Shown one piece after another: positions 1-60,874 of a stretch of DNA of 64,000 nt. Below the pieces are notes generated by a model. It made no database searches. It saw only the letters and a program-made list of their open reading frames with translations, and was not told where the DNA came from. This DNA comes from Pseudomonas sp. BGr12. Its GTDB lineage: Bacteria > Pseudomonadota > Gammaproteobacteria > Pseudomonadales > Pseudomonadaceae. Position 1 is the first letter of the stretch. Each line of letters opens with the position of its first letter. The stretch covers positions 62,001 to 126,000 of the forward strand of contig NZ_JALRNF010000001.1 of NCBI RefSeq assembly GCF_030272895.1. Direction: 5' to 3'. Made by a program: the position numbers and the translations under genes.

Positions 1-51
1 TGGCCGACAGCGCGCAACCTGCAGCGTTCGGTGCTGCAGTTCCAGACCTGA
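1..51 (+). CDS. C-terminal end of a chromosomal protein, probably a chemoreceptor
   Basis: Only the last 16 codons and a TGA stop are in the window. The peptide ends ARNLQRSVLQFQT, which resembles the closing amphipathic helix of many Pseudomonas methyl-accepting chemotaxis proteins (alternating L/V/F with a final F). A factor-independent terminator follows 14 bases later, which supports a real gene end. The fragment is too short for a firm family assignment. Confidence 0.4.
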   Translation, partial: WPTARNLQRSVLQFQT

Positions 52-64
52 GGCACGGACATGA

Positions 65-91
65 AAAAGCCCGGTTTCGGCCGGGCTCTTT
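65..91 (+). terminator. Rho-independent terminator of the upstream gene
   Basis: The arms AGCCCGG (68-74) and CCGGGCT (81-87) form a 7-bp GC-rich stem with a short loop and are followed by a T-rich run. It lies just after the stop at 49-51. Confidence 0.85.
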
Positions 92-148
92 CGATGTCAG
101 CTGGCATTCGCGAAAGACTGCTCTCGGCCGAGGTGCATAGAAGCTCGG

Positions 149-175
149 TGGGAGCGGGCTTGCCCCGCGATTCTG
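149..175. repeat. Half of a Pseudomonas palindromic intergenic repeat
   Basis: The stretch GGTGGGAGCGGGCTTGCCCC (starting at 149) matches the left arm of the full palindrome at 29120-29180, but no complementary right arm follows here. It appears to be a solitary or decayed copy of the same repeat family. Nothing else is evident between 92 and 244. Confidence 0.55.
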
Positions 176-244
176 GCTAAGGCCGCTTTCGGCATCCGGG
201 AAATTCCTCTCACACAGATGCTGCGTCGACATGAATCAATAGTG

Positions 245-592
245 CTATAGATAGGGCCCCTCGGACGCCCCGAGCACAGCCTTGCGACGGCGTTTCACCA
301 GGAGCTTACGGGCTGTTTCGACAAAGGGCGTGACGATCAGGCTATAGACCGTCAGGTAACGCTGGTGGTCTTGCTCTCCGGTGCCGAAGCGGATGTTTTC
401 AGGCGTTGATGTGGTGACATAGAGCGTGCCGAACGTCCAGTCCCAGAGGGACAGGTTGGTGCCGAAGTTGCGGTTGAAATGGCGCGGGGCGTCACTGTGA
501 TGGATCTGGTGCTGGGCCGTGCTGTTCAACACATGCTCGAGCCGTGGGCCGAACGACAGCCAGACATGGCTATCTATCGCGAAGGGCTGCAT
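245..592 (-). pseudogene. Truncated sterol desaturase / fatty-acid hydroxylase family gene (C-terminal part only)
   Basis: The 115-residue frame contains the late part of a fatty-acid hydroxylase-superfamily protein: a HQIHHSD histidine cluster (about residues 28-34), HFNRNFG, then LSLWDWTFGTLY, which is the usual C-terminal signature of this di-iron membrane family. Normal members are two to three times longer, with several membrane helices and further histidine boxes upstream. Those are missing, and the first residues do not look like a natural start. The DNA upstream (from about 600) is AT-richer and carries an unrelated gene, so the 5' part was probably lost at a recombination junction. 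Activity is very unlikely because most metal-ligand histidines are gone. Confidence 0.75.
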
Positions 593-716
593 TCGGCCAA
601 AATGCTGTGACTCAAAGGAGTGTACGAAACCAGGGGCGATTCATAGCCTTAACCGCCACCAAACGAAAAATGCGGATAACCGCAACGCGATTATCCGCCC
701 TACTCCACCAGCAAAA

Positions 717-1223
717 CTACTTCTTCCCGAAATCAACTGTGGTATACCAACTTGTACCTCCTGGGTAATAAAGCGCCACACCCGCATCTGTAAATTGACA
801 ATCGAGCATAATAGCTCTATGTGGCGGACTATTCATCCACCAATCAACAGTTGCCACTTCTTCATTTTGAGAGAGATTATTATCCTTCCAATATATAATC
901 TCGCCAATACGGGAGTACGGTGTATAGCCAGCTTGGGTTATTCGTTGCTCCGGCCTACTACCGTCAGTCCCAGTATGACCATCCGTGCCAGTCTGCAGGT
1001 GGGCTTTTTTATATGCCATGTCATTTGCATGCCGATCGGCGGCTGTCCAAAGCTGCCCATTTCCAAAAACTTCTTTACAACCCGCAGCAACGCGTTTTTG
1101 GTTGATTAGCGAGAGAATTCGATCTGCTGGCCCATTACTCGTCCCACCCTGCGGACAGCCCATCCCCGCCACTGTTACTACTATTACGGGGAGAAACATC
1201 AGCTTAATAATCTGGCCTCGCAT
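717..1223 (-). CDS. Secreted CAP-domain (SCP/PR1, YkwD-like) protein
   Basis: This 168-residue protein begins with a short charged N-terminus and a hydrophobic stretch (about residues 8-22) typical of a secretion signal. A Cys at residue 23 could be lipidated, but the preceding residues are not a canonical lipobox. The mature part has the CAP pattern: ILSLINQKR, a helix with DRHANDMA, GHTGTDGSRPEQRI, a GE motif in RIGEIIYW, and WWMNSPPHRAIMLD, with His residues in the usual cleft positions. CAP proteins of bacteria act outside the cytoplasm; their biochemical role is mostly unknown. The gene sits in DNA that is AT-richer than its surroundings and next to a truncated gene, which suggests acquisition by transfer. 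Confidence 0.8.
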   Translation of the reverse strand: MRGQIIKLMFLPVIVVTVAGMGCPQGGTSNGPADRILSLINQKRVAAGCKEVFGNGQLWTAADRHANDMAYKKAHLQTGTDGHTGTDGSRPEQRITQAGYTPYSRIGEIIYWKDNNLSQNEEVATVDWWMNSPPHRAIMLDCQFTDAGVALYYPGGTSWYTTVDFGKK

Positions 1224-1472
1224 TTTCTGCCCTCCTTTTCTGCAACGCTTATAGGGTGAGGGCGGGACACCTAATCAGGCCCTATAATATTGGCCGGACA
1301 ACCTGAGAGGTCGAACTACTAACACAATATCCAGCAAGCATCCAGCAAATATAAATTCAGAACTACCACGCATTCCTATCATGAAAAAGGCCAGGATCAA
1401 GAATATTTCAACATAAACTACATAGCATTTAGTAATTTAAGGAAACCCTTAAAATGGCCTCCTGAGCCTGGT

Positions 1473-1589
1473 TGTTGGTACTGATACGATTTTGACCTGG
1501 CTACGCATTTTTACTGACCAATACATAACTTATGAAATCCCGCGCAAGGTCATCTTTTGCTGAGCCCTCACATCGTATCAGCGCCAACA
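1473..1589. repeat. 117-bp element bounded by 18-bp inverted repeats (MITE-like)
   Basis: The left arm (1473-1490, containing CTGATACGAT) and right arm (1572-1589, containing ATCGTATCAG) pair at 16 of 18 positions. An inner pair TGACCT (1493-1498) and AGGTCA (1547-1552) could extend a stem. No open frame lies inside. The structure could be a miniature transposable element or a structured RNA; no target duplication is obvious. It is the only clear structure in the gene-free stretch 1224-1631. Confidence 0.4.
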
Positions 1590-1631
1590 TATGGAGTGAT
1601 ATGAATCGCCGCCGCTCGAGTTAAACAAATC

Positions 1632-1769
1632 CTAGCGCGACACTTGCTTCACGGCCGATGCCTCCCGGTGCGACAGGCGGGTACTATCCGCCGATCGATA
1701 GGCGTCGAGAATCTGTCTCGCATCGTCTGAGTCAAACGTCAGCAACGCAACCACCGCTTCTGCGGCCAC
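1632..1769 (-). pseudogene. Possible remnant of a coding sequence, 45 residues
   Basis: A short open frame from a GTG codon (1767-1769) to TAG (1632-1634) has codon use like real Pseudomonas genes and reads VAAEAVVALLTFDSDDARQI and onward. A neighbouring frame just upstream (about 1790-1860) also looks coding (RRKDLKIITELGGLLQ), as if a longer gene had been broken by a stop or frameshift. I do not recognise the family. The stretch 1770-2019 otherwise holds nothing I can support. Confidence 0.2.
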
Positions 1770-2019
1770 CAATGGTGAGCGCGTGGCTTACTGCAGAAGG
1801 CCCCCCAACTCCGTAATAATTTTCAGATCCTTGCGTCGGGCCGCAGCGCGCACTGTCCGGATAGAGAAATCCAGGCACGGGTCGCGTATCAGCATGCCCA
1901 GGGTCGTTCACCGCCTACCGTGAAAGGCAGCTTCTGGCCCTGGCTTTGTGATACCCCAGACACGTCAGCGGATTGCTGCTTATAGAAAGCAAGCGGCGCA
2001 AATATGAAGTCGATTTTGA

Positions 2020-2478
2020 CTATAACCGCCGTGACATAAGGTATTGCTCTTTCCCCCAAGCCTCAAAGCGATCCAGCACTTCCCAACCAAGCGTGGCGTA
2101 ATAAGCGCTCTGGTTGTGAGTGTGCAAGTACAAGGTCGTGAAGCCAGCGCTTCTTGCATGGTCACAGATACCTTCGATCAACTGCGCCGCAAGCCCTCGC
2201 CTTCGCGCTTCAGGTTTGATGAAGACACACGCAAGCCACGGGCCCAGATCCGGCCGGTCAGCCAGGTCGTTACTGGCAAGCGAAGCGCCACCCAGCAACT
2301 CGCCTCGCTCCGTTGCGATCAGGCACTTCCAGCGGCCATCACGCTGTCCATCGGCGAACTCCTGTTGCCAGCTTGAAAGCGATTGCTGGGCAAATTCATA
2401 ACGGAATTCTTGATAAAGCCATTCGGCCATGACGCCGCACTGGTCCATTTGTGTATCGAGCCAATCCACTCGCAGCAT
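2020..2478 (-). CDS. GNAT family N-acetyltransferase
   Basis: The 152-residue protein has the GNAT fold signature: a beta strand ACVFIKPEARRRGLAAQLIE, in which the RRRGLA segment is the acetyl-CoA pyrophosphate-binding loop, preceded by GELLGGASL and followed by TLYLHTHNQSAYYATLGWEV, the usual end of the domain. Family members transfer an acetyl group from acetyl-CoA to an amine; the substrate here is unknown. The start at 2478 is chosen because AAGGAGTG lies at ribosome-binding distance upstream; a longer frame to 2553 has no such site. Confidence 0.85.
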   Translation of the reverse strand: MLRVDWLDTQMDQCGVMAEWLYQEFRYEFAQQSLSSWQQEFADGQRDGRWKCLIATERGELLGGASLASNDLADRPDLGPWLACVFIKPEARRRGLAAQLIEGICDHARSAGFTTLYLHTHNQSAYYATLGWEVLDRFEAWGKEQYLMSRRL

Positions 2479-2618
2479 TTGCAACACTCCTTGTCTGTTT
2501 TTCCCGCCGATAGTAACCGCCGCTGGCAGCCAAATACTCACTTCAACTAGCATGGGACGCCAGGCAAAGACTGCCTGAGAGCACGCTCCTTCATGCGATT
2601 TAACATGACGTATCTCTC

Positions 2619-3383
2619 ATGACTGCCTTCTACCTCAAGCTGTTCATCACACCTGCACTGATGCTGTTGATCTCCTTGGCTGGAAAGCGCTGGGGCGCCC
2701 AGATCGGCGGGCTGCTGTCGGGGCTGCCCCTCACCTCGGCGCTGGTCATGCTGTTTCTCAGCCTGGAGCAGGGAGAGACCTTTGCCTCCATGGCCGTACC
2801 CGGCGCCCTGGCCGGGCTGGCTGCGATCCAGGCGACCTACCTGTTTTACTTCCTGGTCACCCGACGCACTTCTGCGTTTAGCGGATGTTGTGCGGCGCTG
2901 GTTTTCTACGGCTCGACTGCGTTCGCGATGAGTCGTTTGGGGTGGCTGGCACTCTCTATCATCGCCACGCTGCTGCTGGTCGCGGTGATCATTGTGGTCA
3001 CGTCGAAACAAGCACAGACAAAGGCAGCGCAGTATGTCCCCCTGCCCCGCTGGGTCATCCCGATGCGCATGGTGACGGCCACCCTGCTGCTCCTGGCAAT
3101 CACGGCAAGCGCTGAGTGGCTTGGGCCGGTGGCCAGCGGGTTGCTGGCGCCGATACCGGTGATCGCCTGGCCGCTTGCCGTCTTCGCCCATGTGCAGGGC
3201 GGGCATCACGAGCTGGGCGCAATCGTGCGCGGCAATGCGATCGGGGCTGTTGGTGTGGTGGGCTTCTATCTGACCGTCAAGGTTTCGATTCTGCAATGGG
3301 GCGCCGTGCTGTCCATCACTACGGCCGTCATGCTGGCCGTAGTGATGACATTCATGCTCGCCAGGTTGCTGGCTGCACGGTAG
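2619..3383 (+). CDS. Multi-pass inner-membrane protein with an internal duplication
   Basis: The 254-residue protein is almost entirely hydrophobic, with about eight predicted membrane segments separated by short loops. Two halves show a related motif: RWGAQIGGLLSGLPLTSALV (residues 23-42) and WLGPVASGLLAPIPVIAWPL (about 167-186). This suggests an inverted or tandem duplication like that of small transporters, and it is loosely reminiscent of GlpM-like proteins. No substrate can be inferred. It stands alone between the acetyltransferase gene (divergent) and the convergent nuclease-motif gene. Confidence 0.65.
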   Translation: MTAFYLKLFITPALMLLISLAGKRWGAQIGGLLSGLPLTSALVMLFLSLEQGETFASMAVPGALAGLAAIQATYLFYFLVTRRTSAFSGCCAALVFYGSTAFAMSRLGWLALSIIATLLLVAVIIVVTSKQAQTKAAQYVPLPRWVIPMRMVTATLLLLAITASAEWLGPVASGLLAPIPVIAWPLAVFAHVQGGHHELGAIVRGNAIGAVGVVGFYLTVKVSILQWGAVLSITTAVMLAVVMTFMLARLLAAR

Positions 3384-3391
3384 CGGTTGCT

Positions 3392-4990
3392 TCAGGCCGG
3401 GGAAGGCGCCGTCAGCAGGTACCCGTCCAGCTCTTCGATCACGCTCATCGACAGCGTCATCTGTGCATCGATACGCGTATCCAGCGTCCCGATCATCTGC
3501 TTGTCTCGCTCAGCACGGACCACGCCGAACAGATCGATCTTGTCGAGCAGGTAGCAGACAAAGGTCATGCTCAGCGCGGTCGCGGCCCCCACCAGCACAG
3601 CCGTCAGCACAGCGGCAAAGGGTGCAAACAGGGGGACCCCGAGAATAAGCTTCTCGACCACCTCTTCCAGGGCCACGCCACCCACCACGACGCCGCCCGC
3701 AGCGAGCAACTTCAAGGCTTCATGTGCCGCCTGGGCGAAGGTCATGTCCTTGGGCGGGAACAAGAAGGTCTTGAGTGCCTTGAGCAACGAGAAGATCCCT
3801 TCGCGGATCATCCGTACCGCACGTTTGCCGGTGGTGACGAACAGGTTGATCATCACGGTCACGGCATTGGACACGAAGCCGGAAATGAAGCCGCCGCTGA
3901 AACCGTGCAGCATTTGCTCCCATCGCCCCGCTACCTTGACGCCCACACGCTTGAGGCGCTCGCCCAGTTCGGCAAGGATGGTGTCGCTCTGGCGGCCGTT
4001 GCGGAACAGGTCCTTGACCTCGTCCAGGGCGCCGCTGAACAGTTCGACCATGAGCATGCCGAAGGCCTGCTGGCTGCCCATCTTCAAGCCTTCGTTCATG
4101 CCAGTCTGGGCGGCGTGGGCGGTGTAGTAGGCGGCTTTTTCCGAGGTGCTGGGGGCGTGGCGGTCGGCAGCCGCCTGGCCGCGCTCCACTGCAGCCTCTA
4201 CACGCTTGCGATCGATACCGTAATATTCTTCGTTGGTAACTTTGCGACCGCTCGATTGCTTATCCAGCCACACCAGCTTTTCATCATCATTCATCGAGCT
4301 ATTGATGTGGCGCTGAGTGGATATTAGGTTCTCGGTATCCGTCCCGAAATCGGCGCGCTGGGTTTTAGACTGCATGTAGCCACCGTTCTGGTGGTATTTC
4401 TTCAGCGGAATGATGTGGTCGGGGCTGGTCTGATCGCCTTTGACCGTTTCACCGGTGTAGCCATCACGCAGATTCTGTTCTTTGTCCAGTTGGCCACGGG
4501 TAAACGTCGAACCCACCGATTTATCACCGCCCCCAGCGAATCGCTTGCCTTGGCTGTTCGCCCCCCTGTCATAGTGATCGCGGTTGTATTTTTCTTCGTC
4601 AGGATTGGCATAGATGTCCTGCCTGGCATTGTGAACGGTGGTCACATTACCCCCCTGCTTGTCGTACACCGCCAGGAACTTACCCAGCCCCAGTGGACCG
4701 GCAATGGCGCCGATAATGTCGCGCTGCGCCTTGGACAACAGCTCGTTCACCCGGGCCTGGTCGAATTCCTGCTCAAGCTCGCCGAGCAGCTCGCGAGCAT
4801 CCTGGGGGGCGGCCTGCAGCGTGAAGCTCAACGAGGCGTGATAGTCCAGGCTGGCGAGACGTGCGCTGTCGGTCGGCCTGGCCAGCAGCGCCGCGACCTC
4901 TTCAGGGGCGGCAGCGGCGTGAAGCAGCGGGCGGTTGGCCAGTTGCTCGCGCAGGGCCTGTTGTTTTCTGAACTGTTCGAGCTTGCTCAT
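3392..4990 (-). CDS. Membrane-anchored protein with an HNH-type nuclease motif
   Basis: This 532-residue protein has a helical N-terminal region (1-110). A polar middle follows with TSPDHIIPLKKYHQNGG (about 188-204) and then ENLISTQRHINSSM (about 221-234), together matching an HNH (DH...N...H) endonuclease core. The C-terminal third has hydrophobic segments, including LLAAGGVVVGGVALEEV and APFAAVLTAVLVGAATAL, that should anchor it in the inner membrane. It is the last gene of a leftward set after the WYL regulator and the TerB-like gene, 12 bases from the latter, so the two are almost certainly cotranscribed. Inference: a nuclease effector held at the membrane. I do not recognise this architecture as a named system. 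Confidence 0.7.
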   Translation of the reverse strand: MSKLEQFRKQQALREQLANRPLLHAAAAPEEVAALLARPTDSARLASLDYHASLSFTLQAAPQDARELLGELEQEFDQARVNELLSKAQRDIIGAIAGPLGLGKFLAVYDKQGGNVTTVHNARQDIYANPDEEKYNRDHYDRGANSQGKRFAGGGDKSVGSTFTRGQLDKEQNLRDGYTGETVKGDQTSPDHIIPLKKYHQNGGYMQSKTQRADFGTDTENLISTQRHINSSMNDDEKLVWLDKQSSGRKVTNEEYYGIDRKRVEAAVERGQAAADRHAPSTSEKAAYYTAHAAQTGMNEGLKMGSQQAFGMLMVELFSGALDEVKDLFRNGRQSDTILAELGERLKRVGVKVAGRWEQMLHGFSGGFISGFVSNAVTVMINLFVTTGKRAVRMIREGIFSLLKALKTFLFPPKDMTFAQAAHEALKLLAAGGVVVGGVALEEVVEKLILGVPLFAPFAAVLTAVLVGAATALSMTFVCYLLDKIDLFGVVRAERDKQMIGTLDTRIDAQMTLSMSVIEELDGYLLTAPSPA

Positions 4991-5002
4991 CGGGCGGCTT
5001 CC

Positions 5003-6130
5003 TTACGCGGATTTCAGGCTGTTCCAGGCTTGCATGAAGGCCGCTTCCTGCGGGTGCACGGCATCGTCCGAGTGCACGACCAGGTTGATGATGTCGTCGA
5101 AAATGGACAGGCTCATGCCCGATTTTTTCGCCAGCTCAAAGGCTTCCTTCACGGTTGGCGGCTGCTGGTAGAGCGACTCGATTTTGGCTTTGATCGCCTC
5201 TGGAATGGCGCCGGCGGCGAGGCCGGTGATGAACAGCTCGATGTTGGCCCGTTCGTCTGCGGTGATATCGCCGTCGCATTGGGCGGTCGCGACAGCCACG
5301 GCGTTCAGGGCGATGATTGCATTGAAGTGTTCGCCGGCTGCCTTGAGGCTTTCCATGGCTTTTTCCAGGCGCTCTTTGAGCATCGTGATCTCAGCCAGCT
5401 GCTCGGCCTTGGCTTGCTTGACGCCAGCATCGAACCCGGCCTTGCGTGCTTCCTCGTCGCCGTCCATGTTCGCGGCCACCACGGCACCGGCAACGCCAGC
5501 GCCCACGGCAGCAGCGATAGTGCCAGCACCGGCCAGTGAGCCCAGCAGGCTGGCGCCACCGATCAGCGATCCGCCGCCGGTAAAGGGCGCTGCGGCGACG
5601 GCCCCCACGCCGATCGCGGCACCACCGAGCACTTTCAGGTAGTCAATTTCCTTCTCGCCGGAGACCACGTCGCCTACGTAATCGCGCGTGGCGTCGTAGC
5701 CGTTGGAGACGGTTTCGCGAGTCGCGTCGTAAGCGTCGGACACAGCGTAACCCACTGTTTCTGCCGCGTCGGACAGCGTCTCGGCAGTGGAGCTGTAGAT
5801 ATTGGAGGCTGTTTCGGACACTGTCTCGGCCACATTGCCGACCGTTTCGCGGGTGGCGTCATACGCATCGGAGACGGTATCGGCCACTTTGTCAGCCACA
5901 TCGCTGACGGCGTCTTTTGCCGAGTCGTAAGCGCGAGACAGGGCGTCGCCGATAGACGAGAAAATAAAGGTGCAGCCCACTGCGTCGCGGGCCATCGGTT
6001 CGCACTCATGGCTAACCAGGTTGGCACCGAAACCTTGAGTCGATTGCAGGAAGATACGTCGATACATGAGCAGGCCATCCGTGGTGGACAAAAGTGCCTG
6101 CGATTCTCCATAGGGTGCGAGTGATGTCAA
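5003..6130 (-). CDS. TerB-like / DUF533-like protein with an N-terminal amphipathic repeat region
   Basis: The longest frame gives 375 residues. After an uncertain N-terminus comes a run of 11-mer-like repeats (DAYDATRETV occurs twice, then YDATRDYV; roughly residues 55-150), resembling LEA/apolipoprotein-type membrane-binding helices. A Gly/Ala-rich hydrophobic segment (GGAAIGVGAVAAAPFTGGGS, then GAGTIAAAVGAGVAGAVVAA) follows. The helical C-terminal domain contains TAQCDGDITADERANIE and VVHSDDAVHPQEAAFMQAW, the acidic helix pattern of TerB-like proteins. The start is unclear: ATG codons at 6130, 6067 and 5995 are all possible and none has a strong ribosome site. The gene lies between the WYL regulator and the HNH-motif gene in one direction. 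Known TerB proteins act in stress and defence complexes at the membrane; the role here is inferred only. Confidence 0.6.
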   Translation of the reverse strand: MTSLAPYGESQALLSTTDGLLMYRRIFLQSTQGFGANLVSHECEPMARDAVGCTFIFSSIGDALSRAYDSAKDAVSDVADKVADTVSDAYDATRETVGNVAETVSETASNIYSSTAETLSDAAETVGYAVSDAYDATRETVSNGYDATRDYVGDVVSGEKEIDYLKVLGGAAIGVGAVAAAPFTGGGSLIGGASLLGSLAGAGTIAAAVGAGVAGAVVAANMDGDEEARKAGFDAGVKQAKAEQLAEITMLKERLEKAMESLKAAGEHFNAIIALNAVAVATAQCDGDITADERANIELFITGLAAGAIPEAIKAKIESLYQQPPTVKEAFELAKKSGMSLSIFDDIINLVVHSDDAVHPQEAAFMQAWNSLKSA

Positions 6131-6139
6131 TATGCCTGT

Positions 6140-6161
6140 AGTGGCATTTTAGAATGCCACT
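6140..6161. promoter_or_regulatory. Inverted repeat between the regulator and TerB-like genes
   Basis: AGTGGCATT (6140-6148) and AATGCCACT (6153-6161) are perfect complementary arms with a 4-base spacer. The repeat is 10 bases upstream of the longest TerB-like frame and 38 bases after the WYL stop. It could be an operator for the WYL protein or a weak processing or attenuation hairpin; no T-run follows in the direction of transcription. Confidence 0.45.
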
Positions 6162-6199
6162 GCTCATGCGACACAAGGGCCCCGCCATTGGCCGGGTAC

Positions 6200-7072
6200 C
6201 TACTCATACAGCCAGGGCTTCAACGCCTCCAGGTTTTTCACCACAATCTGCTGTGCCGAGGCCTTGGGCTCAAGCTTCTTCGGATCGATCTGGTAGCGCT
6301 GCAACACATAACCCACCAGCGCACACCGCGTCGGTATCACCAGCTCACCGTGCTCCATCCCGAAGTCGACCTCGATGATCGCCTTTTGCTCGGGCTTCAA
6401 ACGCGAGTCCGGCTCGATGACCACATCGACCAGGGTGTTCCACTCCTCATCCTCGTCGATCAGGTGCTCGCTCATCCGCTCGAACTCCGGCGCCCCGCGG
6501 AAGCGGCTCAAGACAAAATCCCGATACTTGCGATTCTTCTCGCAATACGCCCGCACATGCCAACGCATACCCGTGTAGACCAGGGTGTGCGGCGCTATCA
6601 GCCGCATCTCCGGCACGGGGTTGGACAGCGACACATACTCGATGGCGATGACCTCGCCATTTCGGCAAGCCTTGAGCAGTGGCCGCAGCACTTGGGGACG
6701 AATCGTGCGGTCCGGCACCTCCAGTACCTTGGTATGCGCATAAGCCAGTGCCAACCCCTCCACATGCGGTGCCCGCGAGTGGGTCTGGTTCAGCAGCTGC
6801 AGATAGGCATTGGCACTGTCCTCGATGAACAGCGGGGTGAAGTGCTTGCCCGGTACATAACCCTTCAGCTGCTTGTCATATGTAAGGTTTTCAGGCGCAT
6901 GCTCGGTGATGTAGGTGTTGATGTCCTTGGACGCTTGCTGGCGGCTGATGCCGAAGCTCTGCATCAGGTGGCCCGTGGTGAGGCGGCCTTCCCACCAGGC
7001 CACCGTTTCGATCAAGCGATAGCGAAGTGCCAGGTCCCAGCGGACCTGGTCGATCTCTTGTGTGCGTTTCAT
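6200..7072 (-). CDS. WYL-domain transcriptional regulator (BrxR/CapW-like)
   Basis: The 290-residue protein has an N-terminal winged-helix region (about 10-75, with GHLMQSFGISRQQASKDI as the recognition segment). A central WYL domain follows (about 125-215), visible as VIAIEYVSLS, APHTLVYTGMRWHVRAYCE and FVLSRFRGAP, and then a C-terminal extension domain. WYL regulators of the BrxR/CapW group repress phage-defence operons and respond to nucleic-acid or nucleotide ligands. The gene is first in a leftward set with the TerB-like and HNH-motif genes, 69 bases upstream of the former. Inference: it controls that pair. Confidence 0.85.
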   Translation of the reverse strand: MKRTQEIDQVRWDLALRYRLIETVAWWEGRLTTGHLMQSFGISRQQASKDINTYITEHAPENLTYDKQLKGYVPGKHFTPLFIEDSANAYLQLLNQTHSRAPHVEGLALAYAHTKVLEVPDRTIRPQVLRPLLKACRNGEVIAIEYVSLSNPVPEMRLIAPHTLVYTGMRWHVRAYCEKNRKYRDFVLSRFRGAPEFERMSEHLIDEDEEWNTLVDVVIEPDSRLKPEQKAIIEVDFGMEHGELVIPTRCALVGYVLQRYQIDPKKLEPKASAQQIVVKNLEALKPWLYE

Positions 7073-7189
7073 GGCCTGTCCATGTGCGTGGTTTGTTTAC
7101 CTGTACAAGTCTACAATCTATACGTGTAATAAATCACTACATATCCTTTGGCTGTCTTCGTAACAAACGACTTAGCGAAAGGACTGAAC

Positions 7190-7447
7190 ATGACTACGAC
7201 GGATGTGATTTCGGCAGTTGCCCTGGCGATGATGGTGGTGATTGCTGTGTTGCTGCTGGCCCACTATCTGAAGTTGCAAAAGCTGTGGGACACCATTGTC
7301 AGTTGCCGTACGACGTTGCGCTGGGCGCGCATTCATGCGTCGGAGAACAAGGCGCTTCGGTCGGCACTGCGTGCTGAGCGGGCGCATGTGGACCAGTTGC
7401 AGAGGAAGGTGACGTTGCTGGAGGAGTTGTTGCCCGAAGGCAAATGA
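7190..7447 (+). CDS. Small membrane protein with a coiled-coil tail
   Basis: This 85-residue protein has one hydrophobic helix (VISAVALAMMVVIAVLLLAH, residues 5-24) followed by a charged helical tail with heptad spacing (SENKALRSALRAERAHVDQL and on). The start at 7190 is preceded by AAAGGAC. It is divergent from the WYL regulator with about 117 bases between them. No function can be named; small proteins of this form often support membrane complexes or are orphan genes. Confidence 0.55.
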   Translation: MTTTDVISAVALAMMVVIAVLLLAHYLKLQKLWDTIVSCRTTLRWARIHASENKALRSALRAERAHVDQLQRKVTLLEELLPEGK

Positions 7448-7511
7448 ATACTGCCCGCGGGTGCAGGCTCAAGGCTGGCACTCCCGGCCCTGAGCATGTA
7501 GGGAATTGAAG

Positions 7512-8402
7512 TCAGTCCACCGACCCGGCCTGCACCTCCTGCAGGAACGCCAGCAGATGCTCGTTGAATGCCTGCGGCGCTTCCTCCATCACGAAGTGCC
7601 CGCACTCAGGGATGACCACCCCGCGCAGCGATCGTGCGCGCCCCTTCAGCGTCTGCAACGGCGCATCGCCCGTGGCATGCTGCGCCCCGATCGCCAGTAC
7701 CGGCATCTCCAGTTCGCGCTGGGCGCGCTCTGTGTTCTGGCGGATGGTTTCGGGGATCGCCCGGTAATACTCGAAGCCACCCCGCAGGCCACCCGGCGTC
7801 GAATAGGCGCGGATGTAGACGTCCGACGCCACGCTGTGACGGCGCACAGCCCAGAGGTCGAACATGAAGTTCAGATAGCCCTCCTCACGGCCGGCAATCA
7901 GGAACTCCGGCAAGTCGCGCAGCTGGTTGAACAGGAAGTGCCAAAGGAAGATGTTCTCCTGCGGCGCAACGAAGATCGGCGGCGCCGCGGCCAAGCCGGG
8001 AATCACGGCTTCGGCCACCGCCAGGCTCCTCACCGCCTGCGGCTGGTCGCTGGCCAGCGCATAGGCTACCCACATGCCCACGTCATGGCCGACCAGGTGG
8101 TAGCGGTCGTGGCCGAGCTGAGCCATGGCCTGGTGCAGCAGCCGGGCGATAGTGCCGGTGTCATAGCCCTGGGCCGGGCGATCGGAGTCACCCAGGCCCG
8201 GCGGATCGACGGCGATGGCCATGAAGCCGCGCCCGGCCAGCGCCTGCATCACATGGCGCCAGGCATACCAGGTCTGCGGCCAGCCCGGCACCAGCAGCAC
8301 CGGCTCGCCCTCGCCCGCCACCACGCAATGGATACGCAGGCCGTCCACCTGCATATAGGAATGGGTGAACCCATTGACCGAAGAATCGAGAGGTACCGTC
8401 AT
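7512..8402 (-). CDS. Alpha/beta-fold hydrolase, epoxide-hydrolase-like
   Basis: The 296-residue protein shows the alpha/beta hydrolase order: an oxyanion-hole region VLLVPGWPQTWYAW (about 35-48), DPPGLGDSDRP, a nucleophile elbow HLVGHDVGMW with Asp107 as nucleophile, and a late ECGHFVMEEAP with the catalytic His. An Asp nucleophile with the GWPQ motif points to the epoxide hydrolase/haloalkane dehalogenase branch rather than to a Ser esterase. No signal peptide is seen. Its start overlaps the stop of the upstream isomerase gene by 4 bases, so the two are translationally coupled. The natural substrate is unknown. Confidence 0.8.
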   Translation of the reverse strand: MTVPLDSSVNGFTHSYMQVDGLRIHCVVAGEGEPVLLVPGWPQTWYAWRHVMQALAGRGFMAIAVDPPGLGDSDRPAQGYDTGTIARLLHQAMAQLGHDRYHLVGHDVGMWVAYALASDQPQAVRSLAVAEAVIPGLAAAPPIFVAPQENIFLWHFLFNQLRDLPEFLIAGREEGYLNFMFDLWAVRRHSVASDVYIRAYSTPGGLRGGFEYYRAIPETIRQNTERAQRELEMPVLAIGAQHATGDAPLQTLKGRARSLRGVVIPECGHFVMEEAPQAFNEHLLAFLQEVQAGSVD

Positions 8403-9472
8403 GCGCCTGCCTCCTGCGTGTGCACGCCGAGCATCCGGCGAATCTGCCCGGCGTCGACCGGCGCGCCGGCAAAATCGTCGAACACCTGCTCGGTCACCCG
8501 GATGATGTGGCGGTTGATGAATGCCACGCCTTCGCGGGCGCCGTCCTCCTGGTCTTTCAGGCAGCACTCCCACTCCAGCGTCGCCCAGCCGGCATAGTCG
8601 TACTGCGCCAGCTTGGAAAAGATCCGCTTGAAATCCACCTGCCCATCGCCCAGCGAGCGGAACCGCCCGGCCCGATCGGCCCAGCCGCTGTAGCCGCCAT
8701 ACACCCCCTGGCGGGCGCTGGGATAAAACTCGGCGTCCTTGACGTGGAACATGCGAATGAACGGGTGATAGAGGTCCAGGTAGCCGAGGTAGTCCAGTTG
8801 CTGGAGCACGAAGTGGCTGGGGTCGAAGAGGATCCGGCAGCGCTCGTGCTCACCCACCAGGGCGTGGAAGCGTTCGAAGCTGGTGCCGTCGTGCAGGTCT
8901 TCGGCGGGATGGATCTCGTAGCACAGGTTGACGCCCTGCTCGTCACACACATCGAGGATCGGCCGCCAGCGCCGCGCCAGTTCCTCGAAGGCCGTCTCGA
9001 TCAGCCCTTCAGGGCGCTGCGGAAACGGGAACAGATACGGCCAGGCCAGCGAACCGGAGAAGGTGCCCATGTCTTCCAGGCCGAGGTTGCGACTGGCCCG
9101 CGCCGCCAGCTTCACCTGCTCGATGGCCCAGGCGCTGCGTTCTGCAGGGTGCCCGCGCAAGGCCGCGGGGGCAAAGGCATCGCACATCGCGTCGTAGGCG
9201 GGATGCACCGCGACCAACTGACCGAACATATGGGTGCTCAGCTCACTGATCTGCAAGCCGCGCTCGGCCAGCCTGCCCTTGATGTCTTCACAGTAACCGT
9301 GGCTTTGCGCCGCTTGCGCGACATCGAACAGACGCGCGTCCCAGGCCGGCACCTGCAGGGCCTTGAAGCCCAGGCCGCTGGCCCAGTCGGCGATGCTGTC
9401 CAGGCTGTTGAACGGAGGTTGGTCACCACTGAACTGGGCGAGATGGAGACTGGGGCCTTTGAGGGTTCTCAT
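8399..9472 (-). CDS. Sugar phosphate isomerase/epimerase-like TIM-barrel protein
   Basis: The 357-residue protein has the xylose-isomerase-like TIM-barrel signature with metal-binding acidic and His residues: VNLCYEIHPAEDLHDG, RILFDPSHFVLQQLDY, IRMFHVKDAEFYP and WATLEWECC. Such proteins isomerise or epimerise sugars or inositol derivatives in the cytoplasm. It is the first gene of a two-gene leftward unit with the hydrolase. The start at 9472 follows the 44-bp palindrome directly; a longer frame reading through the palindrome is unlikely. The unit is divergent from a TetR gene, which probably regulates it. Confidence 0.85.
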   Translation of the reverse strand: MRTLKGPSLHLAQFSGDQPPFNSLDSIADWASGLGFKALQVPAWDARLFDVAQAAQSHGYCEDIKGRLAERGLQISELSTHMFGQLVAVHPAYDAMCDAFAPAALRGHPAERSAWAIEQVKLAARASRNLGLEDMGTFSGSLAWPYLFPFPQRPEGLIETAFEELARRWRPILDVCDEQGVNLCYEIHPAEDLHDGTSFERFHALVGEHERCRILFDPSHFVLQQLDYLGYLDLYHPFIRMFHVKDAEFYPSARQGVYGGYSGWADRAGRFRSLGDGQVDFKRIFSKLAQYDYAGWATLEWECCLKDQEDGAREGVAFINRHIIRVTEQVFDDFAGAPVDAGQIRRMLGVHTQEAGA

Positions 9473-9474
9473 AC

Positions 9475-9518
9475 GATCGATCCTATTGTTTGTCGATCGA
9501 CAAACAATAGGATCGATC
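9475..9518. promoter_or_regulatory. Perfect 44-bp palindrome: divergent operator/promoter
   Basis: Bases 9475-9518 read identically on both strands, with centre TGTCGATCGACA (9491-9502). Because of the symmetry, the same promoter-like pair appears in both directions: TTGTTT (9486-9491), 16 bases, TAGGAT (9508-9513). It lies exactly between the isomerase gene and the TetR gene, so it is probably the TetR operator overlapping two identical promoters. Confidence 0.8.
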
Positions 9519-9582
9519 AATGCTGGCCGTCAACCCCGAGTTGGATAGAATGGTCGCCCACCCCATTCAAGGCAGGCAGGCG

Positions 9583-10179
9583 ATGGCAGGACGTCCCAGG
9601 GAGTTCGACAAACAGGAAGCGTTGCGCAAGGCGATGCGGTTGTTCTGGGAACACGGCTATGAAGGCACGTCGATGTCGATGTTGGTGTCCGCGCTGGGCA
9701 TCGCGTCGGCGCGGATCTATGCGGCGTTTGGCAGCAAGCAGCAGTTGTTCGAAGAGGCTGTGGCGCTGTATGAATCGGCTGAAGGTGGCTTCGCCGATCG
9801 CGCCCTGGAGATGCCGGATATTCGTCAGGCGTTGGCGCAGATGCTCGATGCGGCTATCGGCACCTACACTCGGGCCGGTGAACCGCGTGGCTGTTTGGTG
9901 GTGAGCGCGGCCAGTGGTGTGGCGCCGGAAAATACCGGGGTTCTTACCTGGTTGTCCGGGCATCGTCTGCAGCGGACCGAGTCGATCATTTCGCGGCTGC
10001 ACAAGGCCCGCGCTGACGGCCAGTTGCCTACCGATGCGGACGTTGAGGCATTGGGGCATTTCTATGCCACGTTCCTGCACGGGATCTCGGTGCAGGCGCG
10101 GGATGGGGTGTCGGCGGATGCGCTGCGTAGTGCCTGCAAGTGTGCATTGGCAGTGTTGCCGGAGAGTGATCGGCGATAG
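9583..10179 (+). CDS. TetR/AcrR family transcriptional regulator
   Basis: The 198-residue protein has an N-terminal TetR DNA-binding domain (AGRPREFDKQEALRKAMRLF, then GYEGTSMSMLVSALGIASAR and IYAAFGSKQQLFEEAVALY, residues about 2-62) and a helical ligand-binding domain with RGCLVVSAAS, a motif common in the YxaF/LmrA-type branch. The start MAGRPRE at 9583 fits the family; an in-frame ATG at 9520 would lie at the expected transcription start. It is divergent from the isomerase-hydrolase unit across the palindrome, which implies repression of both directions. Confidence 0.88.
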   Translation: MAGRPREFDKQEALRKAMRLFWEHGYEGTSMSMLVSALGIASARIYAAFGSKQQLFEEAVALYESAEGGFADRALEMPDIRQALAQMLDAAIGTYTRAGEPRGCLVVSAASGVAPENTGVLTWLSGHRLQRTESIISRLHKARADGQLPTDADVEALGHFYATFLHGISVQARDGVSADALRSACKCALAVLPESDRR

Positions 10180-10289
10180 CTGGTGTTCAGGGGGCTGTGG
10201 TCGGTTCTGCCTAGGCCCCTCCCCTTGAATCTGCACTCCAACCTCGCTACCCTCCTCCTGTCGCTGTAAATCCAGCGACTCGGGCTTGG

Positions 10290-10498
10290 CGGCCCGGGAC
10301 GAAGGCGCAAAGCGCCCCATTTTCACCATCGCAGGCGCTTTTTTTGTGCCCGCGATGCTGCTTTATGGCGGGCTGCGCATGGACTTCTTCGGAAGTGCCG
10401 GTTCCTTCGTACCGGTCCGCCAACCTTGCGTAGTCCGTCACCCTTCCCTGCTTGGCGGCAGTCGGTGGCGGATCCTTTAACTACGAAGGAGCACCACA
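10290..10498 (+). promoter_or_regulatory. Structured leader with two mutually exclusive hairpins
   Basis: The hairpin GGCGC-AAA-GCGCC (10304-10316) shares its right arm with a second hairpin, AGCGCC (10311-10316) with GGCGCT (10334-10339). The second is followed by seven T and so resembles a terminator. Only one can form at a time, as in attenuators. The region then continues about 150 bases with further short inverted repeats to the ribosome site GAAGGAGCACC of the next gene. From memory, similar sequence recurs upstream of DUF3077/DUF6124 genes in Pseudomonas. It could alternatively just terminate the TetR transcript. Confidence 0.45.
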
Positions 10499-10840
10499 AT
10501 GACAAAGCCTGTCCCCGATCCCCCGTTTGTCACCAAAACCAGCACTACTTTCGGCTCCTGTAACAGCAGCCATGCCCCATTGTTTGCCGTCCGCACCGGA
10601 GTCTCGTCCGAAGACGCCCTGGTCCATGCCAGTGTCTTGCTGAGAAGCGCTTACCAGACCAATGCACAGGCCTGTGAGAAGGTCGAGCCTGATGTTCGTG
10701 GGCTGCTCTGGGCTACCCAGCATTCGCTGGAAATGAGCCTGGCGCTGGTGGAGGCGTTGCTGGATGAGGTGGAGGCGCGATCCACGACGGCGGCGTTAGT
10801 GCGTCGTGCTGGGCAGGTGGATCACGCTTCAGTTGAGTGA
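10499..10840 (+). CDS. DUF3077/DUF6124-like small protein
   Basis: This 113-residue protein begins MTKPVPDPPF and contains PLFAVRTGVSSEDALVHASV, then LLRSAYQT and a closing helix EMSLALVEALLDEVE. That arrangement is typical of a Pseudomonas-restricted family annotated DUF3077 or DUF6124 (from memory). The function is unknown; no membrane segment or catalytic motif is seen. GAAGGAGCACCACA provides a strong ribosome site. The family often appears in several copies per genome. Confidence 0.7.
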   Translation: MTKPVPDPPFVTKTSTTFGSCNSSHAPLFAVRTGVSSEDALVHASVLLRSAYQTNAQACEKVEPDVRGLLWATQHSLEMSLALVEALLDEVEARSTTAALVRRAGQVDHASVE

Positions 10841-11144
10841 TTGTTGAAGGTTGTGCCAAGGGCCGCAGGTGCGGCCTATCGATATGGAATGGCGATTTGA
10901 GCTGGTGTCCGGCGTTGGGTGGGAGGGCTGGGTGTTGCTTTGCGCCTGGGTTGCTAGCGATTGCAGACTGGCGACAGCGGCTGCGAGTTCGCGATGCAGT
11001 TCCGTGTGAAGCACAAATCTGGACCGTCTATTGCGCCCTGGATGGAACGTTTTCCTTTTTTGCTGCCCGTCATGACCGGCAGCAATCTTTCGACAAGGGA
11101 GCGGTCGTTCTGTAGCAGTCAATGTAATTTGAGCTCGACAAAAA

Positions 11145-11164
11145 TACTGGCTATGCATACAGTA
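11145..11164. promoter_or_regulatory. LexA-type SOS box
   Basis: TACTGGCTATGCATACAGTA contains the CTG-N10-CAG core and agrees with the classical 20-base LexA consensus at most positions. A possible -35 TTGAGC (11129-11134) and -10 TATGCA (11152-11157), 17 bases apart, would place the box over the promoter. The first gene downstream is the NdpA-like gene at 11294. The rest of 10841-11293 shows no gene I can support. Confidence 0.7.
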
Positions 11165-11293
11165 AAGGTATCGATCACTCTCAATGGCTCTGTTGACCGT
11201 TCGGGGAAAACGGGCGGCAGACCAATGGCCATTTGCAGGCCACCTCTGAGTCTCGTAATCTCACATTGATATTACTGAAACGGAAGTCGATCT

Positions 11294-12427
11294 GTGATCA
11301 CGCTAAAAACCGCCATCATCCACAGCTTCAAGAAAATTGTTCATACAGATCTCGTTTCTGACGTGGTGAAAAAGGACGTTGTCCTCGATACACGAAACCC
11401 AGCGTTAGAGTCCCTTGTCGAAGGCATCAACGGCCTGATTGGTAAAGAAGGGAACAGTGTGGTCTACGGACAATTTGCAGACGACGGTCGCCAAGGCCCA
11501 TTTCCCGATCGGTTTAGTGCATTCGTCGATGTCTGTGATGATGAGGCTGAATTTATCGCTTTAACCCATTTGGCCATGGATCAACTGGTCGAGCAGGCGA
11601 AGGATCAAACCTTGGCTACCGGCGGTCATATTCTCTGCGCGCAGTACACCTCAGGAGCTTCTGACTTCTTTCTAGTCGCCAGTATCAAGCAGCGTGGGGG
11701 CATTCAGCTCGATGAGAACTATGTGCCCAAAGCTATCCAGGAAGTGGACCTGAAGACTGTTCAGCAGGCAGCCAGGATCAACTTGGTGAAATTCGCGACG
11801 GTCACTGCCGCCGCCATGCTTGCTGCTGAAGGCAACGCAGTTGTAGATGCTGCGGACGCAGAAGAGGTTGATACGACCTATCTTTGCTTTATCAGCCGTG
11901 GCCGAGACAGCCAGGCGTCTGACTATTTTATCTCCGCCTTGGGATGTGCCAAAGGCGTGGCATCCGGCCGGGCAACCAAAAATGCCATTGATTACGTTGG
12001 TCGTTTCTTCCGCAACAATAAACAACTCAAGCCCTTTGCCTACAAGGCGAAAGAGGCGGTTGTCCGGTACTTGCAGGACCGGCTGGCGGATGGCAAATCT
12101 GCTCGGCTGGATGCGATCTGCCATGCGGCAATTCAGCACGTTCCACCTGATCTGGTCGATGAGATCGCAGGGCTGAAAGACTATCTCAACGACGAAAAAC
12201 ATCGAGTTCCTGAGGATTTCACCGTCAATCCAAAATCGCTGAAAGAGAAGACCAGGATTAAAGGCGAAGCTGCGAGCTGGTCACTTCAATTTGAACGTGG
12301 TGCTTTGGGGAAGGAGCCAAATTCCGATGTTTATTATGATGAGGGTCGTAAGAAGCTAACCCTATCTAACATGAACCAGGAGCTGGTCGATTTGATTGAG
12401 AAAGAGCTTCAGGCCAGGGTTGGGTAA
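11294..12427 (+). CDS. Nucleoid-associated protein, NdpA/YejK family
   Basis: The 377-residue protein starts at GTG (11294). It matches the 37-kDa nucleoid-associated family: an N-terminal domain with IIHSFKKIVHTDLVSDVV, middle FFLVASIKQRGGIQLDENYV, CFISRGRDSQASDYFISALG and a helical C-terminus. Known members bind DNA and occur once in the core genome; this copy lies in AT-richer, probably acquired DNA. The next gene, for a membrane protein, begins 3 bases after its stop, so the two form one transcript behind a LexA box. Inference: a paralogue recruited into a two-gene stress or defence unit. Confidence 0.8.
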   Translation: MITLKTAIIHSFKKIVHTDLVSDVVKKDVVLDTRNPALESLVEGINGLIGKEGNSVVYGQFADDGRQGPFPDRFSAFVDVCDDEAEFIALTHLAMDQLVEQAKDQTLATGGHILCAQYTSGASDFFLVASIKQRGGIQLDENYVPKAIQEVDLKTVQQAARINLVKFATVTAAAMLAAEGNAVVDAADAEEVDTTYLCFISRGRDSQASDYFISALGCAKGVASGRATKNAIDYVGRFFRNNKQLKPFAYKAKEAVVRYLQDRLADGKSARLDAICHAAIQHVPPDLVDEIAGLKDYLNDEKHRVPEDFTVNPKSLKEKTRIKGEAASWSLQFERGALGKEPNSDVYYDEGRKKLTLSNMNQELVDLIEKELQARVG

Positions 12428-12430
12428 ACC

Positions 12431-13693
12431 ATGTTCTCCAATGTCGTGGCCCTGTACCGGGCAATGGGAGCACCAGCCATCGAAGGTGGTGTAGCCTCCT
12501 ATGATGGACCGCTCACTCCCGACATCACGGCCGCGCTGCAGGGATGCAAGGATTTGCAGCCCGAGTTTGGCAAAATCCAGCATCATGAAATAGTTGAAGG
12601 TGGTGCAGTAGAGATCGAACTCCGCCTACCCACGAATGAATCTGGCCGATTTTACGCGAACGTGAGCGATTTGGCACGTAATGGCTCACTGGGGAAAGGG
12701 CAGTTTCCACAGAATGTATACGTAGTTGACTTAGATTGGGCCGATTTCGACGGTGGCGAACCGACACAAATTAAAGGGCTCAGACGGGTCTGTAGGCTGA
12801 TCGAACTTTTGGCGTTGTTAGCAATCGGGGTAGACAAGGACAGCAGTCCAGACACCTATAATTTGTTCTTCGCTTTGCCTCCCGATGGCGCAAAACCGCC
12901 CAGGACGTTTCTTCTGCCGACTGTGGTTGATGAAAATGTACTTGGGCATGAGCTCAGACACGTGAGTCTGCTAGAGGAGATCCTCAACCGTAAAAATGAA
13001 AACAAGGCTCACCTCTCAGAACGCAAGCTCATGATTCGGATGGCAATTGCCAGTGTAATTGAGAAGTTTGAAAGCGAGCCAAATCACTTCCTCGTAATTG
13101 TTCGCGAATGGAATGAGGTCCTAGCTACCTACCGTGCCAACTTGCAAACATACGTCTACAGTTTCTCATTCGAGAAGGCTCGACGTGAATTGGCACAGGC
13201 GGAAATTGACTACGGGACCAAGCTCAGCGGCGTGCTGGGGGACATTGCCGGAAAAATGCTGGCGCTCCCGATCTCTTTTGCTGGATGGGTAGCCCTGAAC
13301 AACAGCACTTCTCCGTTTGAAGGATTCGTTTTGGTACTTGGTTTGATTGTCGTGTCGCTGGTCCTACTCGCAATCCTGCACAATCAGACGCTACAGACGA
13401 ACCGCTTATTACATAGCTTCAATGTTGTTTTCGACGACTTCAAAGACAAAATCAAAACCTATCCCCCCAAGCTTCAAGGCCTGCTCAAAATTACAATTGA
13501 GCAAGTCGAAACGCAGGGGCGTACTTTGCGGCGCACCTTTCTGTTATTGCAGGGACTGGCATTATTACCCGGGGCCGGGGCGGCGCTATTGGCTCTCATA
13601 AAATATTGGGACTCGCTGCTATGGGTTGCTGTGACTGCTATTTCGGCAATTTCCGCAGCCCCTTATATTGATCCTATTTTTCTAAGTCCATAG
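12431..13693 (+). CDS. Membrane protein partner of the NdpA-like protein
   Basis: This 420-residue protein has a soluble N-terminal half (1-270) with no family I recognise. The C-terminal half has about four membrane segments: ALPISFAGWVALNN, FEGFVLVLGLIVVSLVLLAI, LLLQGLALLPGAGAALLALI and LLWVAVTAISAISAA. A charged loop FDDFKDKIKTYPPKLQGLLK separates the second and third. It is tightly coupled to the NdpA-like gene. Inference: the membrane part could be an effector triggered by the DNA-binding partner, as in other sensor-plus-membrane-effector defence pairs. No direct evidence for toxicity is visible. Confidence 0.6.
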   Translation: MFSNVVALYRAMGAPAIEGGVASYDGPLTPDITAALQGCKDLQPEFGKIQHHEIVEGGAVEIELRLPTNESGRFYANVSDLARNGSLGKGQFPQNVYVVDLDWADFDGGEPTQIKGLRRVCRLIELLALLAIGVDKDSSPDTYNLFFALPPDGAKPPRTFLLPTVVDENVLGHELRHVSLLEEILNRKNENKAHLSERKLMIRMAIASVIEKFESEPNHFLVIVREWNEVLATYRANLQTYVYSFSFEKARRELAQAEIDYGTKLSGVLGDIAGKMLALPISFAGWVALNNSTSPFEGFVLVLGLIVVSLVLLAILHNQTLQTNRLLHSFNVVFDDFKDKIKTYPPKLQGLLKITIEQVETQGRTLRRTFLLLQGLALLPGAGAALLALIKYWDSLLWVAVTAISAISAAPYIDPIFLSP

Positions 13694-16109: not shown

Positions 16110-16600
16110 TATTAGCGTCCGTCCAGCCGGGCTTATTCGCATTGCGAATATTGACATTATATCTTGAGTACAACCTTCGTTTACTAGAAATGAAAATTTC
16201 TATAGCTCCAGTCCAACACTCTAGCTCCAAGCATATCACCACCGTCACAGCAGGGGTATTTGAGTGGGGACACAGTGCCACCATGATCCTGCGAGCTTTG
16301 TTAAATAGGGGGCTTGGCTACCTATTCACATCTCGAAGAAGGACCGCAAATGGCGCTGATCAGCAAGATCATGCCTTAAAGTCCTGATGATCCACTTTTG
16401 GTCGAAATCTACCAACTAGGTCCTGCCTTGCAGCTTCCCCATGCAATCAATTTTCCACCTACTTCAGATCGTAACTTGCCTCAGGTTCCGAAAAAGCGAA
16501 AGCACACCACCCATCGCTTTTCCCGATACAACCCATTTTCCCCCTCCCCAAAAAACCGATGACAATCCCCCCCATCAAACCCAACCACTCAGGTGTTGTC
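16110..16600. other. Intergenic region at the edge of the AT-rich island
   Basis: No gene or clear repeat is evident in about 490 bases. The short open frames here have poor codon use. The base composition shifts to GC-rich core-like sequence near the right end, so this is the probable right edge of the island that holds the NdpA pair and the STAND nuclease. Confidence 0.4.
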
Positions 16601-55825: not shown

Positions 55826-55834
55826 CCCTGCCGC

Positions 55835-55853
55835 TGTAACCAGGCTTTCTACA
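55835..55853. promoter_or_regulatory. Late activator site 2 (TGTA-N10-CTACA)
   Basis: TGTAACCAGGCTTTCTACA lies in the short gap between S and V, the place of the P2 PV promoter. Its centre is only about 57 bases from the V start codon, so the leader of the V transcript would be very short if P2 spacing holds. Confidence 0.65.
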
Positions 55854-55900
55854 AGCTGCGCGCCGTGCGCTTCACGCGCGCGCATCGCAGCATCACCGGC

Positions 55901-58438: not shown

Positions 58439-58446
58439 GAGCAGGC

Positions 58447-60858: not shown

Positions 60859-60874
60859 CCTGTTGACTCATGAC

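What the first reader, a model, noticed from the sequence alone, without database searches (positions are those of the whole stretch)
3392..7072. WYL regulator, TerB-like membrane protein and membrane HNH-motif protein in one leftward unit
Seen: three codirectional genes with short gaps. The first encodes a WYL regulator with helix-turn-helix and APHTLVYTGMRWHVRAYCE; the second a protein with amphipathic repeats and a TerB-like C-terminal domain; the third a protein with DHIIP...NLISTQRHIN (HNH-like) and C-terminal membrane segments. Established: BrxR/CapW-type WYL proteins control phage-defence operons, and TerB domains occur in membrane stress and defence complexes. Inference: a WYL-controlled immunity system in which a membrane-associated sensor works with a membrane-anchored nuclease. 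I cannot match this three-part architecture to a named system.
Basis: partly seen in the sequence, partly recalled or inferred. Interest (0 to 1): 0.8.

Follow-up and report, generated by a model that had tools for sequence, protein, structure and literature searches.

The report
Switchable sensor–nuclease phage-defence cassette
Three neighbouring bacterial genes look like a mobile anti-virus cassette: a switch gene, a sensor/adaptor protein and a DNA-cutting protein held in the cell membrane; in other bacteria the same adaptor is fused to known phage-defence proteins, which makes the idea easy to test.

Summary
On the minus strand lie a BrxR/CapW-type WYL regulator (7072-6200), a TerB-domain protein (6130-5003; likely start 6067) and a 532-aa protein (4990-3392) with a His-Me/HNH nuclease domain and hydrophobic C-terminal helices.

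The nuclease matches PADLOC candidate PDC-M40B (E 1.6e-75), but the partner is not PDC-M40A, a SUKH protein. In 74 species loci, 44 pair this nuclease with an adjacent TerB-domain gene. In 296 genomes of the Vibrio family, all 11 with a TerB hit carry the nuclease beside it.

Elsewhere the TerB domain is the constant C-terminal end of partners whose N-terminus varies: amphipathic repeats here, JukA (jumbo-phage sensor) in seven loci, BnzA in one. WYL genes are about 50-fold enriched at these loci (30 genomes tested). The pair moves as a gene-boundary block, with or without WYL.

Best explanation: a repressible, mobile immune module in which TerB couples a swappable sensor to a membrane-held nuclease. 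Defence is inferred, not shown. PADLOC-type genes were not enriched in the flanks. Identity with "Dionysus", a TerB system in a preprint I could not read, is open. New variant of a known kind.

The parts
3392..4990 (-). Effector candidate, 532 aa: N-terminal helical region with conserved GPxGLGKxxAxYDKxGGNVTT motif (about 98-118), His-Me/HNH nuclease domain (about 146-282; D191, H192, N221, N230), helical C-terminal half with hydrophobic segments (363-491)
   Evidence: PDC-M40B E 1.6e-75; model aligned to Vvn, Cas9 HNH and an HNH nickase; residue conservation; hydropathy
5003..6130 (-). Partner/adaptor, 375 aa as listed, probably 354 aa from ATG 6067: amphipathic repeat region (about 56-160), glycine-rich hydrophobic stretches (165-220), C-terminal TerB-like domain (about 266-375)
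6200..7072 (-). BrxR/CapW-type wHTH-WYL regulator, 290 aa
   Evidence: PF13280 E 9.4e-14; BrxR 7t8k E 2.4e-64
7093..7116 (.). Imperfect palindrome upstream of the WYL gene, candidate operator; 7096-7113 corresponds in position to the palindrome TTTACCTGTACAGGTAAA upstream of congener WYL genes
7148..7447 (+). 99-aa divergent ORF with a hydrophobic N-terminal stretch (by eye) inside the 89.5% identical block shared with L003; possible passenger, role unknown

Best explanation
A horizontally moving anti-phage immune module under a BrxR/CapW-type WYL repressor. In uninfected cells the WYL dimer sits on a palindrome just upstream of its own gene and keeps the three-gene unit low. The TerB protein is membrane-associated; its N-terminal part is the exchangeable infection sensor (amphipathic-helix repeats and glycine-rich hydrophobic stretches here, JukA or BnzA in relatives), and its C-terminal TerB domain is the constant adaptor that positions or switches on the partner. 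The 532-aa protein is the effector: an HNH nuclease held at the inner membrane by its C-terminal helices, which cuts DNA near the site of phage entry once the TerB partner signals. Shown by computation: gene identities, conserved catalytic residues and nuclease fold, recurrent pairing, JukA-TerB and BnzA-TerB fusions, WYL association, movement as a block. Inferred: defence activity, membrane insertion, direct contact between the proteins, the trigger, WYL binding and repression, and that the DNA cut is the phage's rather than the host's.
For: Pairing: a TerB gene is adjacent in 44 of 74 loci (one search counts 43, L002 is added because an over-long ORF start hid it). In 296 genomes of the family of Vibrio albus, 11 have a TerB hit and 33 a nuclease hit; all 11 have the nuclease beside TerB (ten read as ORFs, G580 by coordinates only). 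Fusions: JukA plus TerB in seven loci, L028, L038, L042-L046; BnzA plus TerB in L022. hhalign of five JukA-fusion tails with the TerB profile: 99.6%, E 3.1e-24; hmmsearch of 7 reversed and 140 shuffled controls gave no hit at E<=10. WYL: 29 of 74 loci, 24 within 3 kb. In the genomes of 30 of the 74 loci, 12 of 62 Pfam WYL hits fall in the loci against 0.24 expected. Mobility: DNA homology to L002 covers 3398-6198 (pair without WYL), to L003 3392-7457. Accessory: besides the own genome, 1 of 24 genus genomes (distant relative), none in the same-species genome, 4 of 368 in the class. Nuclease residues and fold. Operator.
Against: No defence assay exists. PADLOC families were not enriched in the flanks: 13 families among 95 flank proteins against 29 among 96 matched control proteins at E<=1e-20. 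TerB is not obligatory: 22 of 33 nuclease genomes of the Vibrio family lack a TerB hit (at least one of them, G495, does have an adjacent TerB ORF, so at most 21), and 30 of 74 loci have other partners (SUKH, a coiled-coil TM protein, PDC-M09A) or none identified. No WYL was found in 45 of 74 loci (19 of the 74 are shorter than 15 kb), and none in L002. Foldseek alone found no significant match for the nuclease (best E 2.9). The TerB model is low-confidence except its C-terminus. The left half of the window's operator is degenerate.
Confidence: 0.66

Rival explanations
1. Toxin-antitoxin or polymorphic-toxin-style pair: the 532-aa protein is a toxic nuclease and the upstream protein neutralises it; phage defence, if any, is abortive.
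For: In five relatives (L053, L054, L070, L071, L075) the gene directly upstream of the nuclease is PDC-M40A (E 5.6e-64 to 1.3e-81), which is a SUKH protein (L070: SUKH-1 E 1.2e-24; SMI1_KNR4 in 5 of 56 partners); SUKH proteins are known immunity proteins (recalled). Partner first, then nuclease with a 12-bp gap, fits an antitoxin-first operon.
Against: JukA and BnzA fusions to the TerB domain point to infection sensing; a separate WYL regulator is often present.
Confidence: 0.2
2. The cassette is the 'Dionysus' TerB system described in a 2025 preprint as blocking early jumbo-phage vesicle formation, that is, already discovered under that name (compatible with the best explanation, so the odds overlap).
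For: Reviews describe Dionysus as a TerB-homologue defence system found in P. aeruginosa and acting at the early vesicle stage (passages); relatives of both proteins occur in P. aeruginosa records (P0036, P0145, P0147).
Against: No passage I read mentions an HNH or membrane nuclease partner or a WYL gene; the preprint is not held.
Confidence: 0.3
3. A membrane-stress or conjugation/plasmid-exclusion module (Ter-like) rather than phage defence.
For: TerB domains belong to Ter systems; a review passage links Ter genes to plasmid exclusion and phage inhibition (PMC7824862). DUF533-type sequence in 9 of 56 partners.
Against: Conserved nuclease site; JukA/BnzA fusions. Other ter genes were not specifically searched for.
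Confidence: 0.12

Closest known systems
PADLOC candidate PDC-M40 (PDC-M40A + PDC-M40B)
   Same: The nuclease belongs to the PDC-M40B family (E 1.6e-75; 36 of 36 nuclease sequences in A5, window included)
   Different: The partner is a TerB protein, not the SUKH protein that is PDC-M40A
Juk (JukA sensor with diverse effectors)
   Same: Two-protein sensor/effector logic; in seven relatives the JukA domain is fused to the same TerB domain beside the same nuclease family
   Different: No JukA domain in the window; the effector is an HNH protein with no JukB match
Bunzi (BnzA/BnzB) and Shango, TerB-linked systems
   Same: TerB association (PMC10952713 table); one relative, L022, carries BnzA fused to the TerB domain; one unidentified member of A5 weakly matches BnzB (E 3.2e-9)
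   Different: Window proteins match neither BnzA nor BnzB models; L022's nuclease does not match BnzB either
Dionysus (TerB system, jumbo phages)
   Same: TerB homologue, found in Pseudomonas (reviews)
   Different: Unknown; preprint not held
BrxR/CapW WYL regulators
   Same: Sequence (BrxR 7t8k E 2.4e-64), palindrome upstream in congeners, association with diverse cargo (PMC9122601 passages)
   Different: Cargo not among those named in the passages I read
GmrSD C-terminal / His-Me finger nucleases
   Same: DHIxP...N...N motif and fold
   Different: Joined to hydrophobic C-terminal helices; no GmrS-type domain found in the protein

Membership tests
BrxR/CapW WYL regulators | wHTH + WYL sequence homology to solved BrxR/CapW | tested here: met
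   E 2.4e-64 to BrxR 7t8k, E 3.9e-38 to CapW 7tb6
BrxR/CapW WYL regulators | Palindromic operator upstream of its gene | tested here: inconclusive
   Congeners: perfect 18-bp palindrome in 4 of 6, one mismatched pair in 1 of 6; the window keeps the right half-site only (3 mismatches, 0.00 expected in 64 kb); binding untested
PDC-M40 (PADLOC) | PDC-M40B protein | tested here: met
   E 1.6e-75 over residues 74-509
PDC-M40 (PADLOC) | PDC-M40A (SUKH) partner | tested here: not met
   Window partner has no PDC-M40A hit at E<=0.1; PDC-M40A search of own genome and 17 relatives: 0 of 18
Juk | JukA sensor domain | tested here: not met
   No JukA hit in the window partner at E<=0.1; present in 8 of 56 partners of relatives
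Juk | JukB effector | tested here: inconclusive
   No JukB hit in the window nuclease or the other 35 nucleases of A5, but I did not confirm that this PADLOC release holds a JukB model
Bunzi | BnzA and BnzB | tested here: not met
   No BnzA/BnzB hit in the window proteins at E<=0.1; both models exist in the library
TerB domain | TerB profile match and fold | tested here: met
His-Me/HNH nuclease | Conserved catalytic D/E-H...N...N | tested here: met
His-Me/HNH nuclease | beta-beta-alpha fold | tested here: met
Dionysus | Orthology to the published genes | not testable with these tools
   Preprint not held

The most novel reading that the evidence does not exclude
The TerB domain is a general plug in bacterial immunity: a constant adaptor that couples interchangeable infection sensors (JukA, BnzA, membrane-reading amphipathic helices) to a membrane-embedded HNH nuclease, so that phage DNA is cut at the membrane as it enters, with a WYL switch as an optional add-on.
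Probability: 0.35. Interest if true: 0.85.

Novelty: new variant of a known kind. Interest (0 to 1): 0.64.

Why it matters
If right, it explains why TerB domains keep turning up in defence systems (Bunzi, Shango, Dionysus): they would be the connector between a changeable sensor and a shared effector. It also suggests a way of attacking phage DNA at the membrane, before phages that hide their DNA in vesicles or nuclei are protected, and gives a concrete domain-swap test of sensor and adaptor roles.

Tried and rejected
Defence-island test: up to eight flanking proteins of at least 150 aa at each of 12 loci (95 of the 135 picked, the nearest; four partner proteins dropped by hand, and TerB, nuclease and WYL ORFs removed by the script) against 96 proteins from 12 stretches of the same contigs. 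PADLOC at E<=1e-20: 13 families against 29 (25 shown; much of the control list is one family, PD-T4-6, in many models). No support for island enrichment.

Foldseek of both models against PDB gave nothing significant; only the VIA second look showed the nuclease and TerB-like matches. Other rows there (transporters, dynamin, GPCRs) are helical look-alikes at similar Z. No convincing sequence-level PDB relative of the nuclease or TerB family.

Phage origin: no match in phage records and only 2 viral contigs, so not a common phage gene. TerB partner not found on plasmids; the nuclease has hits in 66 plasmid records, all below 60% identity. The operator pattern was absent from viral contigs as an exact match.

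An alternative coiled-coil partner with a C-terminal hydrophobic stretch lies downstream at 16 loci; its role is unresolved. A JukA partner without a recognisable TerB tail exists (L035; hhalign probability 3.7%).

Literature: ten full-text searches. 'PDC-M40' gave no paper; three of TerB, HNH, anti-phage, DUF533, YaaW gave two, neither describing this pair in the passages read. That covers open-licence PMC papers only. No paper was read whole; I saw passages or listings.
Full report
WHAT IS THERE. The minus strand carries three codirectional genes: WYL regulator 7072-6200, TerB-like protein 6130-5003, HNH-motif protein 4990-3392, with gaps of 69 and 12 bp. The TerB gene is probably 21 codons shorter than listed (ATG 6067), since its closest homologue begins there. 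The WYL protein is a clear BrxR/CapW relative (E 2.4e-64 to BrxR 7t8k).

THE PARTNER IS MODULAR. I built a profile of the C-terminal part shared by 25 TerB homologues and mapped it on the 56 partner proteins of A4. I had chosen these: 44 with an earlier TerB hit (window, 42 loci, one of them with two genes) and 12 upstream neighbours without; the 44 match and the 12 do not. 24 of the 44 are short (183-257 aa), usually a glycine-rich stretch plus TerB. Close Pseudomonas relatives carry an N-terminal amphipathic repeat region, as in the window. In L028, L038 and L042-L046 a JukA domain precedes the TerB domain; JukA models hit 8 of 56 partners in all, the eighth being L035, which lacks a recognisable TerB tail. 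In L022 the N-terminus is BnzA (E 6.1e-115) and the TerB domain follows at 566-774. The tails of five JukA fusions align with the TerB profile by hhalign at 99.6% (E 3.1e-24), and hmmsearch on 147 reversed or shuffled controls gave no hit. JukA is described as the sensor of early jumbo-phage vesicles with diverse effectors (PMC13282480, passages). So one TerB domain, beside the same nuclease family, is joined to different N-terminal parts, two of them known defence proteins. This is the main evidence that TerB is an adaptor and that the system serves immunity. It is still guilt by association.

HOW CONSTANT IS THE PAIR. A scan of one genome per species gave 74 loci. TerB is adjacent in 44: one search counts 43, and L002 was missed because its longest-ORF start overlapped TerB. 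In two (L014, L028) TerB lies downstream of the nuclease. Other partners: SUKH/PDC-M40A proteins (L053, L054, L070, L071, L075), PDC-M09A proteins (L037, L064, L066), and a coiled-coil protein downstream in 16 loci. In 296 genomes of the family of Vibrio albus, TerB was found in 11 and the nuclease in 33; all 11 have the nuclease next to TerB (ten verified as ORFs, G580 by coordinates). Independence would give about 1.2 shared genomes. The reverse does not hold: 22 nuclease genomes have no TerB hit, though G495 does show an adjacent TerB ORF, so the true number is at most 21.

REGULATION. An iterated WYL profile finds WYL genes in 29 of 74 loci, 24 within 3 kb, 16 of these upstream on the same strand. 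As a control I searched the whole genomes of 30 of the 74 loci for Pfam WYL: 62 hits in 166.1 Mb. Matching coordinates by hand, 12 of the 62 lie inside the 0.64 Mb of loci, against 0.24 expected (Poisson P about 5e-17). In six congeners a WYL gene 71-78% identical at DNA level (in one, only 459 bp aligned) sits in a 17-18 kb stretch in which no ORF of 90 aa or more matches TerB or the nuclease: similar regulator, other neighbours. Upstream of these WYL genes, at -41 to -24, four of six have the perfect palindrome TTTACCTGTACAGGTAAA and one has a single mismatched pair; the window keeps the right half-site, its 3-mismatch match being the only one in 64 kb with 0.00 expected. CapW and BrxR are known to bind such sites (PMC9122588, PMC9122601, passages).

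MOBILITY. In P. wadenswilerensis (L002) the 88% identical block is 3398-6198: nuclease plus TerB, ending before WYL. In Pseudomonas sp. Irchel 3A7 (L003) it is 3392-7457, including WYL. No other part of window 1-12000 matched either locus. Besides the own genome, 1 of 24 genus genomes has a nuclease relative (27-28% identity), and the same-species genome has none; in the class it is 4 of 368 others. So the pair is an accessory cassette and WYL an optional part.

AGAINST. Flanking proteins were not richer in PADLOC matches than matched controls. Nothing here shows phage restriction. SUKH partners in relatives fit a toxin-immunity reading.

WHAT IS KNOWN. PDC-M40 is a candidate label without a paper in the library. 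TerB is listed for Bunzi and Shango (PMC10952713, passage). Dionysus is described as a TerB system (PMC12926258) that acts against jumbo phages at the early vesicle stage (PMC13282480, PMC12931631, passages); its preprint was not readable, so this cassette could be a Dionysus member. I therefore rate it a new variant of a known kind, with interest mainly in the adaptor idea.

Noticed in passing
window 10247-10445: C4 antisense RNA (RF01695, 75.2 bits) and its a1/b1 target (RF03163), a phage/satellite immunity signature, to the left of a low-GC stretch
   Followed up: partly
window 13824-16157: Mrr-type nuclease plus nSTAND3 protein matching PADLOC PDC-S73 (E 1e-160), GC3 0.45; a second candidate defence gene
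   Followed up: no
window 11294-13693: 37-kD nucleoid-associated protein (NA37, E 4.9e-42) followed by a protein with no family above cut-off, in the same low-GC stretch
   Followed up: no
window about 55000-64000: ORFs that look by eye like P2-type phage baseplate, tail fibre and sheath genes; not tested
   Followed up: no
P0077, P0081, P0085, P0089: Nuclease relatives in Vibrio, Pseudoalteromonas and a Gracilibacteria record are named 'lactate permease' in public records, apparently a mis-annotation
   Followed up: no
L016:4142-5414: Two TerB partner genes in tandem before the nuclease
   Followed up: no
A4 (one of 56 partners): One partner protein carries an H-NS C-terminal domain (E 6.7e-12); member not identified
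   Followed up: no
L141:1072-2160: 362-aa relative that matches the family profile mainly in the C-terminal half (309-525), hinting that the membrane part can occur without the nuclease
   Followed up: partly
L016, L064, L067, L070, L073, L128: More than one ORF, or stops inside, match the nuclease in these relatives, so several copies look broken
   Followed up: no
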